A model generated the notes under the pieces. It was not told the origin of the DNA, did no database searches, and worked only from the letters and a program-made list of their open reading frames with translations. Of a DNA stretch of 64,000 nt, positions 55,276-63,924 are shown piece after piece. Position 1 is the stretch's first letter. The number at the start of each line of letters is the position of its first letter. This DNA is from Melampsora larici-populina 98AG31 (lineage: Eukaryota > Basidiomycota > Pucciniomycetes > Pucciniales > Melampsoraceae). A program made the position numbers and the translations under genes. The stretch covers positions 393,848 to 457,847 of the forward strand of contig NW_006768808.1 of NCBI RefSeq assembly GCF_000204055.1, written 5' to 3'.

Positions 55276-56639
55276 ACGCGCTAACTAACACGCATATGTT
55301 CAGTACACACAAAATCTTGACATGCACCAAGCAGCATGATTATTCTACTCTTTCCTAACTCATTTGCACAACTTACACCATCAGCACTTACATCCTTTTT
55401 TTGCTTCACGCGCACTTTACGCGCACTTACTCGATTGTCATTTTTTAAATAAAAGTCCCCGTATGCTCATACTCTAGTCACGTAACCTGCTAGCCAAGAC
55501 ATCCCTTATGCATCTTGTCTTCTCGAGTACTTGCGATTCACACCTTTCATACCACTGTTACTATCATAATATTGTACATTTCAGGCTATAGCATATTTGA
55601 ATCAATGATATTCGCAGAGGTTTTTCATTCATTTTTCAACCATACTACATTCATGTCTTTCATATGATGCTTTCTTTTATCTTGTTCTTCTTGTAAAATT
55701 TGTTAGACGAGCCTTTTCATTCTTTGTGACTGCATTATCATCATATTGCTATAACGAACATATCATCTTTTGTTGAAGAATCTTTTTCAAAAATTTCTTG
55801 TTGAGCAACACGTGACGAACTGTACTAATGATTTTGCATGCTCCTAATTATACATTGACTCATTCGCGCGCGCTCGGATTTGACCGCCATTGTGAGTTCC
55901 ACTGAACTTGTGAAACACGGATACTCACATAGGATGCTAGCCCGGTGCCGAACTTCATAGCAGAAGAAGTCAACCAAGGGAAGGTTCATGGCCGATCTTG
56001 TGTACTAGTCCTTTTTACATATATAGATAACTAGGCAATTGGCGCCCAGCCGCCACACAGACTTGAGCCATGTCAATTCCTCACATGTACGTAGTAGTCA
56101 AAGAGAAGAGCGTCACAGTTCCCCTGATTCCGTTTTGTGCAGAGCATGGCCTAGCAAATATAGTCAGAATGACAAATTGCATAACAGCATCTTTCAAACT
56201 TTGTGCTTCTATCACTGTGGCTTCTATGGAAGTTGAAGTTGTTCTTGATTTGTTGATCAGATCTATCAGATTGAGCAAAACAAGTGGAGATAGTTGAATG
56301 AAGTCCTTGAAACAATTTCAATGATTTTCTTGAAATGATTTCATGAATTTGAATGATATGAATTTGACAAAATGGATGATGCCTGGAATTTGGTGGACTA
56401 TGACATGATTACATGCTTCACTTGATGAGCTGAGTGTGAAAAGGTTAGTCCAATCAAAGAGCTGAGCCACACTGGTGTTGTCTGATGATGATGAACAAAA
56501 TTGGTCTTCCAATCTTGTTTTGATCCCCTGTCTTTCTCAATCTTTGACATCCATTATACCTTTAATCCGAGACCGTCCTTAATCTTTGCCATGGGTCCCT
56601 CAGCTTTGTACTCATCTCCTCAGACCTACAAAGAACAAC
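55276..56639. other. 3' region of the SH3 gene and repeat-like DNA
   Basis: No gene supported. A T-rich stretch at 55.3-55.8 kb is probably 3' untranslated and downstream sequence. 56.0-56.6 kb is repeat-like. Confidence 0.4.
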
Positions 56640-57785
56640 AAGCAAAAGCGACATCCAGCCCAACAGCAATCCAACATTGAGCACATCTAGCAACACATTA
56701 ACTCCAACTCCTGGTCCAACAACATCTCAGGCTACTAAGAAGCGTAAGCAGTCCAGCAACAACGGAAGCCAGGCAAAGAAGCAGAGTAAAGTTTCTCAGG
56801 TTGGTTGCTTTTTCACTACTTCTCACCATTCTCATCATTCCTGACTGCTTACTTCATTTTGTATACTCAGGTCAAATTGGTCCCCAACATGATTGATGTG
56901 AACCAGGATTCATCTTCTGAAGATGAGGCTGCAACCCCATATCAACCAAGTAAGAAAGGAGGTGTCAAGATTCTCCTTTCATACTTTGGCAAAGCAAATC
57001 ATAAGCCAGGCAAGGGAAGTACCTGTCTTCACTTTATACCTGTCTTCTCATGTGTAATTCTCCTTTACTGATGATTAATAATTTACAGAGCGGTTCATTT
57101 CAGAGTTGGTACCCTTGCCAATGGTGGGGTGAGTACTTGACTAGGGGTTGCAAGACCAACTCAAATCTATATGGTCATCAAGATGGTGAGCCGGAAAGTC
57201 TCCCCTGTGACAGCTGCAAACGGGCTATTAAGGCGGGTATGGATCTTCCACCTAACCATCAACAACTAGAACAAGCCGCAAACGCAAAGACCGCTAGTGG
57301 GAAGATGATGCAGGCCTTTATCAACAAGCCAGCTTTCTCAGTGGAAATTCTCAGCATCCTCCTTGTAATTTGGATTGTGCGGCAAGTAATAGCACGGAGG
57401 AGATTCTCCGACTTAACTCTACAAGCGGCTTTCAAGCTCTCTAACCCTGGTGCCAACATGCAATCACTTAGCTGGGCTTCTCAAACCGCAAAATCCCTGT
57501 ACAAGTCACTGCATTCAGCTGTGTTAAGGAAATTATTGATAAGTGAAGATATATCTGTTGCATCATCTGATTTCATTGAAACACACTGACCAATTTTGCT
57601 GAATCACAGAATAATTCCAGTCACATATGGCTATTGCATGATGTGTGGACAACTAAAGGTACACCACACTTTAATAGCACTCATTGCCTGTTATGTTGAC
57701 AAGAACTTTTGCTTTCAAAAGGTCCTGCTGACCCTCAAGAGAAGACCTCTGTGTGAGTGTACAACCTACTTTGGACAAACATAAA
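56640..57785 (+). pseudogene. hAT transposase, N-terminal half (broken)
   Basis: Fragments in several frames match a hAT family common in rusts. Landmarks: a Ser/Lys-rich start, SDEDEAATPYQ-like acidic stretch (about 56925), YPCQWWGEYLTRGCKTNSNLYGHQDG (BED-type zinc-finger region, decayed), CKRAIKAGMDLPP, NKPAFSVEILSILLVIWIVRQ, and WLLHDVWTTKG (about 57630), the conserved H-D-x-W-T-T-K motif. At least three frame changes and stops break it. The remaining hAT sequence continues at 61.7 kb on the far side of the Harbinger element. Confidence 0.65.
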
Positions 57786-57939
57786 GGTGTTATGATTAGT
57801 TACAAATCAAGTTGTTATGCTGTGTTGTTACGTGTTGCGTTGTTTGTGTTGATCACTGCTGTGTGCCCTGATTATGTGTATTGATCTGATTGGTATGGTA
57901 TGACGTGACTGATATGTTTCACTCTGTACAATGATATAA

Positions 57940-57964
57940 GAGCATCTCCAATCGTTTGGGTTAA
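57940..57964 (+). repeat. Harbinger left terminal inverted repeat
   Basis: Begins GAGCATCTCCAATCGT and continues TTGGGTTAA; its partner is at the right end, reversed. Confidence 0.9.
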
Positions 57965-58038
57965 ATCTTGGGTTAGCGGGGCTAGAGTTACAGATCTTTA
58001 GCCGGGGTCAGCTAAACTAACCCAAATTCCCGCAATCG

Positions 58039-58138
58039 NNNNNNNNNNNNNNNNNNNNNNNNNNNNNNNNNNNNNNNNNNNNNNNNNNNNNNNNNNNNNN
58101 NNNNNNNNNNNNNNNNNNNNNNNNNNNNNNNNNNNNNN
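58039..58138. other. assembly gap, 100 N
   Basis: A run of exactly 100 N, the usual placeholder for a gap of unknown size. It lies between the left terminal repeat and the first visible transposase codons. Confidence 0.98.
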
Positions 58139-59602
58139 TTAAATTTGGTGCGAACTTCACCTTTTCAAAGTCTGTATATCTTATTGCAACATGGACGCGA
58201 GTGCCATTTTAGAACAGCACGTGAAATTATCAATGAAGAACTGAATCACGAGTACGATGAGCTGATCATGGCACTGATAAAGGAGTCATCAACAACCCAA
58301 CAAAAGAACACACGTGAAACTATTCAACACGACCGGATTGCTGCTGACCAACAACTTCAACGCGACTACTTTCAAGACTCACCATTGTATCCTCAACATC
58401 TATTTGAAAGGAGATTCCGAATGAGTCCAGAACTTTTTGGACGACTGGCTGCCGACCTGCAGGGACACAACAAATACTGGATACAACGTCGCGTAAGTTT
58501 TTCCAAAACTATCATTAATGTTGGATTCAACAGTTGAACATCTATGCCATATAGGATTGCTGTCTGAAACTAGGACACTCAACAACCCAGAAGATGACCG
58601 CTGCGCTGAGACAACTGGCTTATGGAATGGCTGCCGATGGGTTAGATGATTACTTGAAAATTGGTGAAAGTACTGCAATAGAATCTTTGAAACATTTTGT
58701 ACGCGATATAATCGACCTCTATTCAGCGGAATACCTAAGACCCCCAAACTCTGAAGAGCTTGAGAACATACTAAAAGAAAACAAGATGAGAGGCTTCCCC
58801 GGATGTAAAGGGAGTATAGATGGCATGCATTGGCTATGGAAGAACTGCCCTCAAGCATGGGCTGGTCAGTACGAGGGGAAAGAGAAGGGGACCTCAGTAA
58901 TACTGGAGGCAGTTGCTTCAAAGAATCTATGTATCTGGCATGCCTTCTTTGGAACGCCAGGAGCCCTCAATGATATCAATGTTTTACATAACAGCCCACT
59001 GTTTGATTCCTTTATTAATGGTAAGATTTTTGGCTGTTATATCAGGTAGCAAGTATCTGACCTTTTCTACTCTCTTGAACTCGTATGGAGTAGGTTCTGA
59101 AGACAGAGTCCACTTTGAGGTGAATGGCAATCAATACACTCGTGGATATTATCTGGCAGATGGGATCTATCCTGCTTGGCCAGTCCTCATCAAGTCGATA
59201 CAACGACCTTTAGACAAAGCAAGTAAGTATTTTTCAGAGTGCCAGGAAGCACTAAGAAAAGACATTGAGCGTGCTTTTGGGGTGCTTCAAGCGCGCTGGC
59301 ATATCCTGAGTCAACCATGTCGTCTTTGGAGTCTGAAGGAAATGACCAAAGTGATTTTATGTTGCATCATCCTTCATAACATGGTGGTGGAAGACCGTGG
59401 CGAGTTGGATCAAGTCACCATTGACTATCGCACAAAACATGGGCTTGAGATACATCCCAATTGTCTTGATCCTCAAATCTCATACACTCTTGCTGAATAT
59501 TACAACACAACATCAGAGCTACGAAGTCGCGATCAACACCTACGTCTGATGGAAGATCTCAAAATTTCAATGTGGATTAAGAGGGGGACTGGAGGGAATT
59601 AG
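58139..59602 (+). CDS. Harbinger DDE transposase (DDE_Tnp_4 type), 5' end in assembly gap
   Basis: Nuclease-type transposase that cuts and joins the element ends. Exons 58139-58492 (5' end open into the gap), 58555-59020 and 59091-59602 join in phase with good GT-AG sites; about 444 residues are visible. The N-terminal part (FRMSPELFGRLAADLQGH) is the usual helix-turn-helix-like region, followed by QKMTAALRQLAYG. The DDE triad is intact: Asp in GSIDGMHW, Asp in GYYLADGIYP and Glu in DIERAFGVLQARW. ILHNMVVEDR near the C-terminus is also typical. No stops or frame breaks were found. A true start may lie in the gap; the first in-frame ATG after it is at 58268. Confidence 0.9.
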
Positions 59603-59876
59603 ACAAGAAATTCACGTTATGTTTCGATCTCAATCGATTCTGTTATGTTTCTTTTTCTATTTCATTTCATAAAATATAATCTCATCAATTGACCCAATGT
59701 CTCTGGTATGCAAATTTGTTATGGCAAGACACTTGAGAATTTCTTTTATTTCAGTGACCACAATAAACAAACAAAGATCAGTCAAATCTAGTGTAGAACA
59801 TAGATAAGGTGAATTAGATCAACATGAATAGAATGAAATAAATTCCCAAGTCTAAGAGAAAAGATAGTTCCATGTT

Positions 59877-60784
59877 CTAATCCTCAGCCTGAACCTCTTC
59901 GTCATTTGAATACTTCTTCATCAATCTCGCTTTCAGCATCTTTAACACAGCTCTTGACTCTTCATCTGGACATGAATCAGGGGAAGTCGTTAATACCTTC
60001 ATATCTTCATAATAAGCGTGGCTCTTCTTAGCTTCAGCATCGATCTCAAGAGCACGATCCGCAATCTTTTGACCATGTTCTAACATCTTAAGCTTTTGTT
60101 CCTGGATGTCGGAAGCCCGCTTGGGTTCTTCAGTCCGTTCGACATCTAACTCAGCCTCCTTGCGTTGTCTTTTCGCTTTTTTTTGGCCGACAGGACGTTC
60201 AAGAGGGTTGGAAGAAGGGGGTGGTGGTGTTGAACCGGTATGGATGATCGGATGGTGGACACCTGAGGCTGAAGTTCCAACTGAAGCTTTCTTGACTGGA
60301 TTGGCAACTTGGGCCCATTTAGGAACATAACGCAAGATCTCCCACACCGCCTCATCCTTGAATACCTCGCTGGTTTGATTTTGATAGGTCTTCTTTGCTA
60401 TGCGCATGTAATCACTGGGGGCGGTTCCACTAGGAGGGTTTCGTTCAATCGACCCGTATATACCCGAGAATTTGATTGTAGAGGTGTTCAGAGTTTTCCA
60501 ACTAAGCCGAGAGAATACTGAATCAGCAGATGGTCAGGAAGTCAAAACAAATACAGATTCACTCACCGGTTCGGAATCTGTTGACCCGTGCGATGGACCG
60601 TGGATGCATTGTTATAATGCTCAGTCACCTTGCGATAAAACTCGGCACCAGATTGATTGTTTGAAGTTTCGGCGTTCTCGCTGATTGCGAGCCACGAAAA
60701 GGCCAACTGTTTGTCTTCAAGTGTTGTCCAGTTGGGCGCTCGAGATTTCTTCTGAGGTGCATCATCGAGTGGTATCTCAGCCAT
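59877..60784 (-). CDS. Harbinger accessory Myb/SANT-like DNA-binding protein
   Basis: Second protein of PIF/Harbinger elements, needed with the transposase for nuclear import and recruitment to the element ends. Two exons, 60567-60784 and 59877-60501, give 280 residues. The N-terminal trihelix/SANT-like part reads NWTTLEDKQLAFSWLAISEN, GAEFYRKVTEHYN and, after the intron, WKTLNTSTIKFSGIYGSIE. The C-terminal half resembles the NAM-associated domain: FKDEAVWEILRYVPKW, then a basic stretch (GQKKAKRQRKEAELD) and a helical KLKMLEHGQKIADRALEID. No disabling change. Start chosen as MAEIPLDDAPQKK, just after the promoter-side end of the element. Confidence 0.85.
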
Positions 60785-61109
60785 CCAAAGCAAGTTAAAA
60801 ACTAAAGTGTTGTGGAGAGTGAGGGTTGAGAGGAGTCGAGTAGAATTTTATGTTGGAGTGGAGGTGTCACAGTTGAGGATGTGTATACGGTGAGCGGGGT
60901 GGATGAGGATTGAGCTGAATGGGAGATGTGGGCCTAGCTGGATTGAGGGGCGAAGTGAGGTGTGAGTTGAGTTAAGTAACACTGGGGTTAGCTGGTGTTA
61001 AATTTAACCCGCTAGAAGATTTTTTAAGAAAAAGTTATAACCCTGCCCTAAAGATTCACCGCTGTGAATTTTTGAAAAAGAATAATGAAATATTTAACTA
61101 ATCCTGTGA

Positions 61110-61134
61110 CTTAACCCGACGATTGGAGATGCTC
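61110..61134 (-). repeat. Harbinger right terminal inverted repeat
   Basis: Reverse complement begins GAGCATCTCCAATCGT and continues CGGGTTAA, matching the left end. Confidence 0.9.
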
Positions 61135-61137
61135 TAA

Positions 61138-61699
61138 GGATCTCCAAACTCTCAATTCCCCTCTCACAAGAAACTAATCCACTTTCATTGTATTTGTTTC
61201 CTTTTTATTGTTTCTCTGAATAGATCAAATCTTTATGATTATCTTTCAACTTGTTCTAAATATACAATACTACACGACAATTATCTCCAACTAAAAAGCT
61301 CAATCTAAATTAAACTCAAAACTCTCATCAAAAAGGAAGGAGGTATAAACACATTTCTAATCCTGATCCTTTGATTATCTATGTCATTCATGATTACTTA
61401 TCTGAATCTCAAAATTGTTCATCTAAAACTATAGATTCCTTTTTGATCTTTTGTTTGATTTGAAGTTGTTGTTATAAAGTTGAGTTCCACTAGTGTAGTT
61501 ATTGTTAAAGGTACAAGATTTCTCCTTCTATTTCACTATTAAGATTGCCATCAAGTTTCACTTACATAAAATGTTATTGTTAAAGACATAAAAAATTTAA
61601 GTTCTTTCCCAAATAAAGAGAGATCCTACCTGTTCACCACAAAAGGTAACATATTTGGATTGGCATGTCACAAAGTCGGTTGCTTCTTTTTTGGCTCTC
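61138..61699. other. spacer inside the split hAT element
   Basis: AT-rich sequence to the right of the Harbinger insertion, with no recognisable reading frame. It should correspond to hAT interior or an intron, now decayed. Confidence 0.35.
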
Positions 61700-62415
61700 T
61701 TTGAATGCTTGATCCTAAACAAAAACTGACACACTCCTCTCAGATTGATTGGGTCAGCAAAAAGATTGCCAGATCACATTCTTGTCTGCAAGAATTCCAA
61801 GGAATTGTTAAGGACTCTGGATTGAGCTATAAAACACCAATTGCTGGCTATGGCATTCACTGGAAGGTTATATATGATTCACACATCTGAATGTGTGCAG
61901 CACAAGACTCAGAGGCAAGTTTATCACCTTTTTATCAACTTACATATATTGATCTGGTAAATTCATTGGTTTGAGTGTCACTCACAGATAGTTGACAAGA
62001 TGTGAAGCAATGATTGCAAATTGACTCAGTACTTCAAAGGCACCCTTATCCATGCTGATGAATGGGAGGCCATCAAGGCCCTCAATTTGATATTAGAGGT
62101 TATTGTTTCTATTTGTAATCACAGAGCTTCTACTGAAACCATAAAATGATTTATCTTTGTCTCTTATTTTGCATGTGATAGATCATTTCAATAGGTATCA
62201 AACATATGGAGGGTGACTTCCTGTCAGGTGCCATTGTCTTGGTCAAATACAATCAAATCAAGAGATCTCTTGCTAAATCTCAGAAGAAGACACCTTTCAT
62301 CCCACTCAAGGATATGATTAATGTAATGCAAGATCAGCTGGAAACATACCTCACAGAGGCTTTAGAGTGTGACACTTTAGTCTTTTTGACTATACTACAC
62401 CCTTGATATTGGCTA

Positions 62416-63013
62416 CAGTCAAACCTGTGCAATTGCATACCCGCGCAACTGCATAATCTGCCATTTTGCATAGACCAGGACTTCCCCCAACTTGCTGCAG
62501 GCTAAAATTTGAGTTTACAGTTGAACCTGCGCAGCTGCATACCCACGCAGCTGCATAACCCACGATAATGCATAGAAAAATTCCTCAATCTTGATGCTGT
62601 TTACCGCCAAATTTGACAACAGGATTGCATAACCCGTCAAAATGCATAGGAAAAGTCTTCCACCCAAATTATGTGATTGCACAGGTTCAACTGAATTGCA
62701 TAATTATGTCAAAAATGATAATTCATAGTTAAAAATCCAAAAAACCCGGGTCTTGAAAGCCTAATTGCATATCTTTTAGGCCAAATACAGGATAAGAATG
62801 CACTTAAGTATACATAAACCTTTAGCCCTGGGTCTTGAATCCTAACCCTAGCCTGTGAAAATGCATAATGTTATGTAATTTGACCTATTTCTGCATTTAT
62901 GCATAACTTTATGCATTTTGACCCATCCTGTATTTTACCTCACTTTGTATAACCCATGAAATTGCATAGGCCAGATGTTCCCCCCAAATTATGCAATTGC
63001 GCGGGTTTGACTG
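62416..63013. mobile_element. outer pogo/Tigger-like MITE (598 bp)
   Basis: Starts CAGTCAAACCTGTGCAATTGC and ends in the reverse complement of CAGTCAAACCCGCGCAATTG. TA lies at 62414-62415 and 63014-63015. It sits inside the hAT transposase and contains a second, smaller element of the same family. It has only GCATAA-rich non-coding interior. Confidence 0.85.
62518..62693. mobile_element. inner 176-bp pogo/Tigger-like MITE
   Basis: Starts CAGTTGAACCTGCGCAGCTGC and ends in GCACAGGTTCAACTG. TA precedes it; AA follows (one changed base). Its interior (for example CAATCTTGATGCTGTTTACC and CTTCCACCCAAATTATG) is the reverse complement of the element at 43107-43282, and both are 176 bases. Confidence 0.85.
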
Positions 63014-63240
63014 TAGCTTTTTTTCAAAGAAAATATCCGGAACACAAGGAACAAGCAAACTCATTGATCAAGTTGGCCTTTGGATCAGCGCTGAAGGATT
63101 GGCCAGTACCAGACTCTACCCCAGCGCAAGGAGACAAAATTGATCAGCTGCTGCAGACCATACCAATGATGATTTTGACAAGTTTACTGCTAGTTTGAAC
63201 CAGAACAACTAATATTCCCTACTTCTGATGTGTGATGAAT

Positions 63241-63351
63241 AGATTGTTTAGCTGTAGAGATTGATAAAATAAGCTTTTTGTCATGTAAATGTTGTTAAAT
63301 GTGGTAAGCCCAAAAGTTGAAATTCACACCGTTTTCTTTGATACCTTATAA
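63241..63351. other. spacer ending in a 9-bp target duplication
   Basis: End of the hAT remnant and flank of the next element. ACCTTATAA at 63343-63351 is the left copy of the target duplication. Confidence 0.6.
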
Positions 63352-63915
63352 CAAACTTATCAAAGTCCCTTGCCAAAGGCCCAAGGCTTGAGCAAGGGAA
63401 TTACCGCTAAAAAGAAAATCATGGCCTGAGAAGTAGCCTGTATTGGCTCAAAAAGCTCTACATTGGTTTATTTTTTTTATCCCACAAGAAACAATATTTG
63501 ATGCAAAATAAAAAGATAATATTAAGATCTCATTACATATGCTCCAATTGCAAGGTCCTTTGTATCTTTCTGGGAACTTGCACTTTTGAGTGATTGAAGA
63601 TTGATCAATTTCACCAAATACAGGCTCCAAGCGGGCTAACGGGTCAGAAAAAGTAAAAAGGACATGTTTTTTAACACCCACTAGCAGGTGCTCTAGACAA
63701 GATATGGTGGAGCTTGCAGTTGCAATCTATGTAATGGACGTTTTTGGTACTACTTTTATTTTGCTTCAAGCCTTGTTTATTTACAAACAAAACAGGTATA
63801 TTGAAGTAGCAATATTTGAGCCAATACAGGCTACTTCTCAGGCCACAATTTTCTTTTTAGCAGTAAGTCCCTTGCTCAAGCCTTGGGCCTTTGGCGAGGG
63901 ACCTTGATAAGTTTG
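63352..63915. mobile_element. 564-bp MULE-type (Mutator-like) MITE
   Basis: Long inverted repeats, about 102 bases each, start CAAACTTATCAA(A/G)GTCCC and carry GCCAAAGGCCCAAGGCTTGA and GGCCTGAGAAGTAGCCTGTA in both arms. A perfect 9-bp direct repeat, ACCTTATAA, flanks it (63343-63351 and 63916-63924). Long arms and a 9-bp duplication define Mutator-like elements. The interior has no transposase, so the element is non-autonomous. The arms are >90% alike, so it is fairly young. Confidence 0.92.
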
Positions 63916-63924
63916 ACCTTATAA

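What the first reader, a model, noticed from the sequence alone, without database searches (positions are those of the whole stretch)
56640..63924. Four-layer transposon nest: hAT split by Harbinger and by MITE-in-MITE, with a MULE MITE alongside
A hAT transposase reads N-terminal half at 56.6-57.8 kb and central/C-terminal half at 61.7-63.2 kb, same strand. Between them is a whole Harbinger element with its TAA duplication. The second half is interrupted by a TA-flanked MITE that contains another TA-flanked MITE. The order of insertion can be read directly: hAT first, then Harbinger and outer MITE, then inner MITE. Removing the outer MITE plus one TA restores the hAT frame except for one stop.
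Basis: partly seen in the sequence, partly recalled or inferred. Interest (0 to 1): 0.75.

Follow-up and report, generated by a model that had tools for sequence, protein, structure and literature searches.

The report
Nested transposons with hidden solo LTR
An old, broken jumping gene in what is probably a rust fungus has been hit repeatedly by other jumping genes, one inside another; it is a clear example of an ordinary kind of genomic wreckage.

Summary
The oldest layer is a degenerate hAT copy (56603-63208). Both halves match the same three hAT paralogues in this genome, in the same order and orientation, and at the compared junctions those paralogues lack the inserts. The Harbinger (57940-61134, TSD TAA) did not land in the hAT. 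It sits inside a 656-bp solo LTR (57788-57939 + 61138-61641, TG...CA, 5-bp TSD AAAGG), and that LTR is what split the hAT. Further right, a TA-flanked MITE (62416-63013) carries a second, related MITE (62518-62693; flanks TA/AA). A MULE-type MITE (63352-63915) with an exact 9-bp duplication lies just beyond. Deepest nesting is three levels on each branch; six mobile elements are resolved. The hAT is not one stop away from intact: against the paralogues it lacks about 0.5 kb internally, has at least two in-frame stops and two frame breaks, and has lost its dimerisation region and 3' end. Two paralogues have 7-bp duplications, as published for rust 'hAT7' elements, not 8-bp. A near-identical Harbinger on another contig suggests recent movement. 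New member of a known kind; low interest.

The parts
56603..57787 (+). hAT remnant, 5' coding part; about 0.5 kb present in the paralogues is absent at about 57739; ends at the LTR target site
   Evidence: 71-73% identity to three paralogues; homology start 56603; missing stretch 506, 506 and 492 bp in C233, C17, C19
57783..57787 (.). left 5-bp target duplication AAAGG of the LTR
57788..57939 (+). solo LTR, left piece, begins TGTTATGATTAG; its last three bases are the left TAA of the Harbinger
   Evidence: a 53-base match on C16 starts at the same TG
57940..61134 (+). PIF/Harbinger element with TSD TAA (57937-57939 / 61135-61137)
   Evidence: inverted ends, TSD, domains, sister copy on C10
58039..58138 (.). 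run of 100 N inside the Harbinger; the sister copy has 68 bases there
58139..59602 (+). Harbinger transposase gene region, in several exons; one single-base length difference in the predicted first exon breaks its frame relative to the sister copy
   Evidence: PF04827, PF13359; comparison with the sister
59877..60847 (-). second Harbinger gene (NAM-associated domain in 59877-60533)
   Evidence: PF14303, E 1.3e-13
61138..61641 (+). solo LTR, right piece, ends CACCACA
   Evidence: 39 other match rows, 11 of them ending at exactly the last base
61642..61646 (.). right 5-bp target duplication AAAGG of the LTR
61642..62415 (+). hAT remnant, middle part, with in-frame stops near 61889 and 62405
   Evidence: 70-75% identity to three paralogues; stops
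62416..63013 (.). outer MITE (with the inner one inside); TA at 62414-62415 and 63014-63015
   Evidence: single-TA empty site in 3 of 3 hAT paralogues
62518..62693 (.). inner MITE, 176 bp; TA at 62516-62517, AA at 62694-62695
   Evidence: absent from 17 of 17 other outer-MITE loci examined; independent copies
63014..63208 (+). hAT remnant, last recognisable part; homology ends between 63193 and 63208
63352..63915 (.). MULE-type MITE with 162-bp inverted ends; 9-bp duplication ACCTTATAA at 63343-63351 and 63916-63924
   Evidence: 9-bp duplications in related copies

Best explanation
Dead hAT DNA served as a landing site. A hAT element of a low-copy family decayed. An LTR retrotransposon inserted into its coding region (5-bp TSD) and was reduced to one LTR, presumably by LTR-LTR recombination. 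A PIF/Harbinger then inserted into that LTR at TAA by cut-and-paste transposition. On a second branch, a TA-targeting MITE inserted further downstream in the hAT and then received a second, related MITE. A MULE-derived MITE inserted just beyond the hAT remnant. Shown: the junctions and duplications, and empty sites for the LTR, the outer MITE and the inner MITE; hence hAT before LTR before Harbinger, and hAT before outer before inner MITE. Inferred: the recombination that left a solo LTR, transposase supplied to the MITEs from elsewhere, and neutrality. Nesting does not order the two branches against each other, nor the hAT's deletions against the insertions.
For: Both hAT halves match the same three loci in order. 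LTR: TG..CA, AAAGG on both sides, empty site in 3 of 3 paralogues; relatives on C76 (begins with the same 12 bases, aligns to both pieces) and C181 (begins TGTTATGACTAA, aligns along the left piece); paired LTR-like matches 4905-4950 bp apart on C181, C22, C23. Harbinger: matched ends, TAA on both sides, TCA on both sides of the sister. Outer MITE: empty site in 3 of 3 paralogues. Inner MITE: absent from 17 of 17 outer-MITE loci examined. MULE MITE: exact 9-mer.
Against: The hAT's own ends and duplication were not found. The inner MITE's right flank is AA, not TA. The sister Harbinger's TCA does not fit the published TWA target. No empty site for the Harbinger insertion was examined. LTR relatives are only 68-87% alike in the listed rows, and its superfamily stayed unknown. 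A 100-N run lies inside the Harbinger. Part of the MULE family (L040, L045) shows no 9-bp duplication.
Confidence: 0.94

Rival explanations
1. One reading: the Harbinger inserted directly into a nearly intact hAT, with no LTR layer.
For: Harbinger with TAA duplication between two hAT halves.
Against: hAT homology stops at 57787/57788 and resumes at 61642, 152 and 504 bases away from the Harbinger ends; the sequence between has LTR relatives that span the Harbinger position; the hAT lacks an internal 0.5 kb and its C-terminus.
Confidence: 0.02
2. The scaffold was joined wrongly at the N run, so left and right parts come from different places.
For: A 100-N run lies in a Harbinger with a near-identical copy elsewhere, a typical place for a false join.
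Against: AAAGG and TAA duplications, the two LTR pieces and the two hAT pieces all agree across the run, and the sister has 68 bases where the run stands.
Confidence: 0.03
3. The outer and inner MITE are one compound element that moved as a unit.
For: Related ends and a homologous 3' part.
Against: 17 of 17 other outer-MITE loci examined lack the inner piece at that site; the inner piece occurs alone with TA/TA in 2 of 2 copies inspected. In one search only the window itself matched along the whole compound, but just 40 of 239 candidates were scored there.
Confidence: 0.01

Closest known systems
hAT7 transposons of rust fungi (PMC12730594, passages read)
   Same: hAT dimerisation region in the C19 paralogue and exact 7-bp duplications in C17 and C19
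   Different: No TET/JBP gene was looked for by a dedicated search; phylogenetic place within hAT not tested; the window copy itself has lost its ends
PIF/Harbinger (PMC4482050, passages read)
   Same: TAA duplication, ends starting with G, DDE transposase plus a second gene
   Different: No Myb/SANT domain reached Pfam significance in the second gene; the sister copy has TCA; the frame of the first transposase exon is broken in the window copy
Solo LTRs of LTR retrotransposons (general knowledge)
   Same: Single LTR, TG..CA, 5-bp duplication, no internal region
   Different: Superfamily not determined (inconclusive)
TA-target (Tc1/mariner or pogo type) MITEs and MULE MITEs (general knowledge)
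   Same: Inverted ends, TA or 9-bp duplications, many copies, short
   Different: Parent transposases not identified
Nested insertions in Puccinia triticina BACs, Copia inside Gypsy (PMC3579696, passages read)
   Same: Elements inserted into elements in a rust genome
   Different: Here a hAT, a solo LTR, a Harbinger and MITEs are stacked, with empty sites for three of the insertions

Membership tests
hAT superfamily | hAT C-terminal dimerisation region | tested here: inconclusive
   PF05699, E 1e-7, above cut-off in the C19 paralogue; the window copy has lost that region, so membership rests on homology to the paralogues
hAT superfamily | terminal inverted repeats and target duplication in the window copy | tested here: not met
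   none with 8 bp; two weak 7-bp candidates, each with mismatches in both ends and duplication, taken as chance
hAT7 of rusts (paralogues) | 7-bp target duplication | tested here: met
   exact in 2 of 3 paralogues, GTAATAC in C17 and AGTGTAT in C19; the right end of C233 was not found
hAT7 of rusts (paralogues) | transposase groups with published hAT7 | not tested
   published sequences are in supplements not available here
PIF/Harbinger | 3-bp TWA target duplication | tested here: met
   TAA in the window; the sister copy on C10 has TCA, which is not TWA; the ends of the seven relatives L061-L067 were not recovered by the pattern used
PIF/Harbinger | DDE transposase of the family | tested here: met
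   PF04827 E 3.8e-37 and 1.6e-40, PF13359 E 1.3e-7
PIF/Harbinger | second gene with Myb/SANT domain | tested here: inconclusive
   PF14303 NAM-associated, E 1.3e-13, but no Myb/SANT hit
Solo LTR | TG..CA, 5-bp duplication, no internal region, relatives in pairs | tested here: met
TA-target MITE (outer) | TA duplication and inverted ends | tested here: met
TA-target MITE (inner) | TA duplication and inverted ends | tested here: inconclusive
   TA on the left, AA on the right in the window; TA/TA in 2 of 2 other copies inspected
MULE MITE | 9-bp duplication and long inverted ends | tested here: met
   9 of 9 in the window, 162-bp arms. Of 19 related loci 10 had both ends scored: 6 with 9/9, one 8/9, one 6/9, one 3/9, one an alignment artefact
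MULE MITE | mobilised by a MULE transposase | not tested
   no parent element searched for

The most novel reading that the evidence does not exclude
The Harbinger family is still mobile in this fungus: two copies with different target duplications (TAA and TCA) differ by two events over about 2.8 kb, so the youngest layer on this branch could be recent enough to be polymorphic between isolates or nuclei. The clustered 11 differing columns near the 3' end (60954-61087) do not exclude this but suggest one copy is mosaic.
Probability: 0.45. Interest if true: 0.3.

Novelty: new member of a known kind. Interest (0 to 1): 0.14.

Why it matters
It is a clean case of transposon stratigraphy: five insertions bounded to the base, four of them by target duplications exact on both sides, and three (LTR, outer MITE, inner MITE) also checked against empty sites. 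It shows how reading such a nest can skip a layer, since the solo LTR looked like plain spacer. It also supports 7 bp as the duplication size to expect in this group of hAT elements. It tests no long-standing question by itself.

Tried and rejected
Looked for the window hAT's own ends: fuzzy match to the paralogue end repeat (only hits with 7 or more mismatches of 20-21), an 8-bp scan (none) and a 7-bp scan (two weak candidates, 56014/64228 and 56446/65234, each with two end mismatches and one duplication mismatch, taken as chance). The same kind of 7-bp scan on C19 and C17 returned only their true ends. A first, loose 8-bp scan listed many chance hits in the paralogues and the window (lists cut at 15 and 20).

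Considered the Harbinger as a recent transfer from plants, because the 32 rows that carry an organism name among the 120 listed hits (of 212) are plants. In a tree of 121 rows the window fragment falls in a group of 22 rows with none of those 32, so a recent plant origin is not supported. The unnamed rows could not be identified, and the tree is rooted at the midpoint only.

Tried to name the organism from a zinc-finger gene in the window: the two best of 120 listed hits are unnamed (88% and 49% identity) and no named rust is among those listed. The mix of hAT, PIF-Harbinger, MULE-type and LTR elements fits Pucciniales (PMC12210899, passages read), but that is inference.

Tried to type the LTR as Copia by an RVT_2 search (150 of 522 candidates scored): none of the listed places falls in the LTR pairs of C22, C23 or C181; inconclusive.

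A repeat family abuts the right end of the hAT remnant (63209-63342). The 85 bases after the MULE MITE gave no other copy, so I could not show that the MULE MITE split that repeat.

A structure search of a paralogue frame against solved structures gave nothing useful.
Full report
The window lies in a 98.3-Mb, 243-contig genome. Because it may be kin of a listed crop pathogen, I compared pieces with relatives and mended nothing.

The hAT. The 5' part matches C233, C17 and C19 at 71-73% and the 3' part matches the same three loci at 70-75%, in the same order and orientation, with about 600 bp between the two matches in each paralogue. The 3' part had 18 other match rows in the genome, the rest weaker or partial, and no near-identical second copy. 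The C19 copy carries the hAT dimerisation region (PF05699); the window pieces tested gave no hAT domain hit. C17 and C19 have inverted ends starting CAACACGCAAAC (12 of 12 bases alike in C19, 11 of 12 in C17), exact 7-bp duplications (GTAATAC, AGTGTAT) and lengths of 4048 and 4087 bp; the right end of C233 was not found. Seven base pairs is what PMC12730594 (passages read) reports for the hAT7 group of rust fungi, so 8 bp is the wrong size to look for.

The window copy is a wreck. Relative to the paralogues it lacks 492-506 bp at about 57739, the stretch that in the paralogues encodes TTDSGSNN or TTDLGSNN and CHKLAL (the resemblance of these to hAT catalytic and CxxH motifs is recalled). It has in-frame stops near 61889 and 62405; the second is at a codon where C233 and C19 also have a stop and C17 does not. 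Frame changes occur near 57.67 kb and 63.13 kb. Homology ends between 63193 and 63208, before the dimerisation region, which is not found in the next 2.2 kb. No convincing ends or duplication were found. The claim that removing one MITE would restore the frame except for one stop therefore cannot hold for the gene as a whole; the removal itself was not done.

The missed layer. In 3 of 3 paralogues hAT homology leaves the window at 57787/57788 and comes back at 61642, not at the Harbinger ends. The paralogues read ACATAAAGGTAACAT across the point. The window has AAAGG followed by TGTTATGATTAG.. on the left, and ..CACCACA followed by AAAGG on the right. The interposed 656 bp, Harbinger apart, is therefore an LTR with a 5-bp duplication. 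Its right piece has 39 other match rows in the genome, 11 of which end at exactly the same last base, and pairs of matches 4905-4950 bp apart on C181, C22 and C23 suggest complete LTR elements. A relative on C76 begins with the same TGTTATGATTAG and aligns to the left piece and to the start of the right piece; a relative on C181 begins TGTTATGACTAA and aligns along most of the left piece. A 53-base match on C16 starts at the same TG. No internal region is present, so it is a solo LTR.

The Harbinger. 57940-61134 has matched ends and TAA on both sides, a DDE transposase and a second gene on the other strand. It interrupts the LTR after 152 bases. A sister copy on C10 is flanked by TCA on both sides. 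The sister differs by two events over 58139-60953 and by 11 columns between 60954 and 61087, while the 99 bases at the left end are identical: a recent relative, perhaps mosaic near the 3' end. One single-base length difference lies in the predicted first exon and breaks the transposase frame of the window copy relative to the sister; it is close to the N run and could be an assembly error. The N run (58039-58138) corresponds to 68 bases in the sister. Because both levels of target duplication and both split elements agree across it, a false join is unlikely. The transposase fragment falls outside the 32 named plant rows in a tree of 121 rows.

The MITEs. The outer MITE has TA on both sides, and 3 of 3 hAT paralogues show a single TA in the empty site, GCTAGCTTT. 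The inner MITE is absent from 17 of 17 other outer-MITE loci examined; these came from the 40 candidates scored of 239. Two independent inner copies have TA on both sides, while in the window the right flank is AA. The two families share related ends and a homologous 3' part. The MULE-type MITE has 162-bp inverted arms, 82% complementary, and the identical 9-mer ACCTTATAA on both sides. Of 19 related loci, 10 had both ends scored: 6 with a 9/9 duplication, one 8/9, one 6/9, one 3/9 and one an alignment artefact. It lies outside the recognisable hAT.

Order. Nesting fixes hAT before LTR before Harbinger, and hAT before outer MITE before inner MITE. It does not order the two branches. Identities to other copies fit this roughly: hAT 70-75% to its three closest paralogues, outer MITE 77-92% over its longer (3') part and inner MITE 87-93%, MULE MITE 94-96% to its closest relatives, Harbinger near 100% to its sister. 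These are copy-to-copy values in different families, so they are only a guide.

Known or new. Nested elements are ordinary: PMC3579696 (passages read) reports Copia inside Gypsy in Puccinia triticina BACs, and PMC12210899 (passages read) lists hAT, MuDR, PIF-Harbinger and MITEs in Pucciniales. Four paper searches showed no description of this nest, but they cover an open-licence library only, and apart from the four papers opened I judged listings by title and the start of the abstract.

Noticed in passing
56030-56494: A repeat with sharp edges just left of the hAT remnant; the three best other copies in this genome are 82-86% alike and several rows share only the first 40-60 bases.
   Followed up: partly
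63209-63342: A repeat of about 134 bp starts where the hAT homology ends and stops next to the MULE MITE; 39 other rows at 78-88% were scored of 150 candidates. It may mark how the hAT lost its 3' end.
   Followed up: partly
window 60954-61087 against L060: The two Harbinger copies differ by 11 columns in 134 bp here but by two events in the 2.8 kb before it, which suggests a mosaic or conversion tract.
   Followed up: partly
L039 2311-2498 (64153-64340 in window coordinates, beyond its end): The stretch beyond the window is 70-71% alike to both flanks of the C17 hAT copy, so it resembles an empty target site of that copy.
   Followed up: partly
L027: Another outer-MITE copy is split by a different insertion of about 355 bp at the position of 62754-62756.
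   Followed up: no
L041: A relative of the MULE MITE with an exact 9-bp duplication spans 1220 bp instead of about 570, so it seems to carry an insertion of its own.
   Followed up: no
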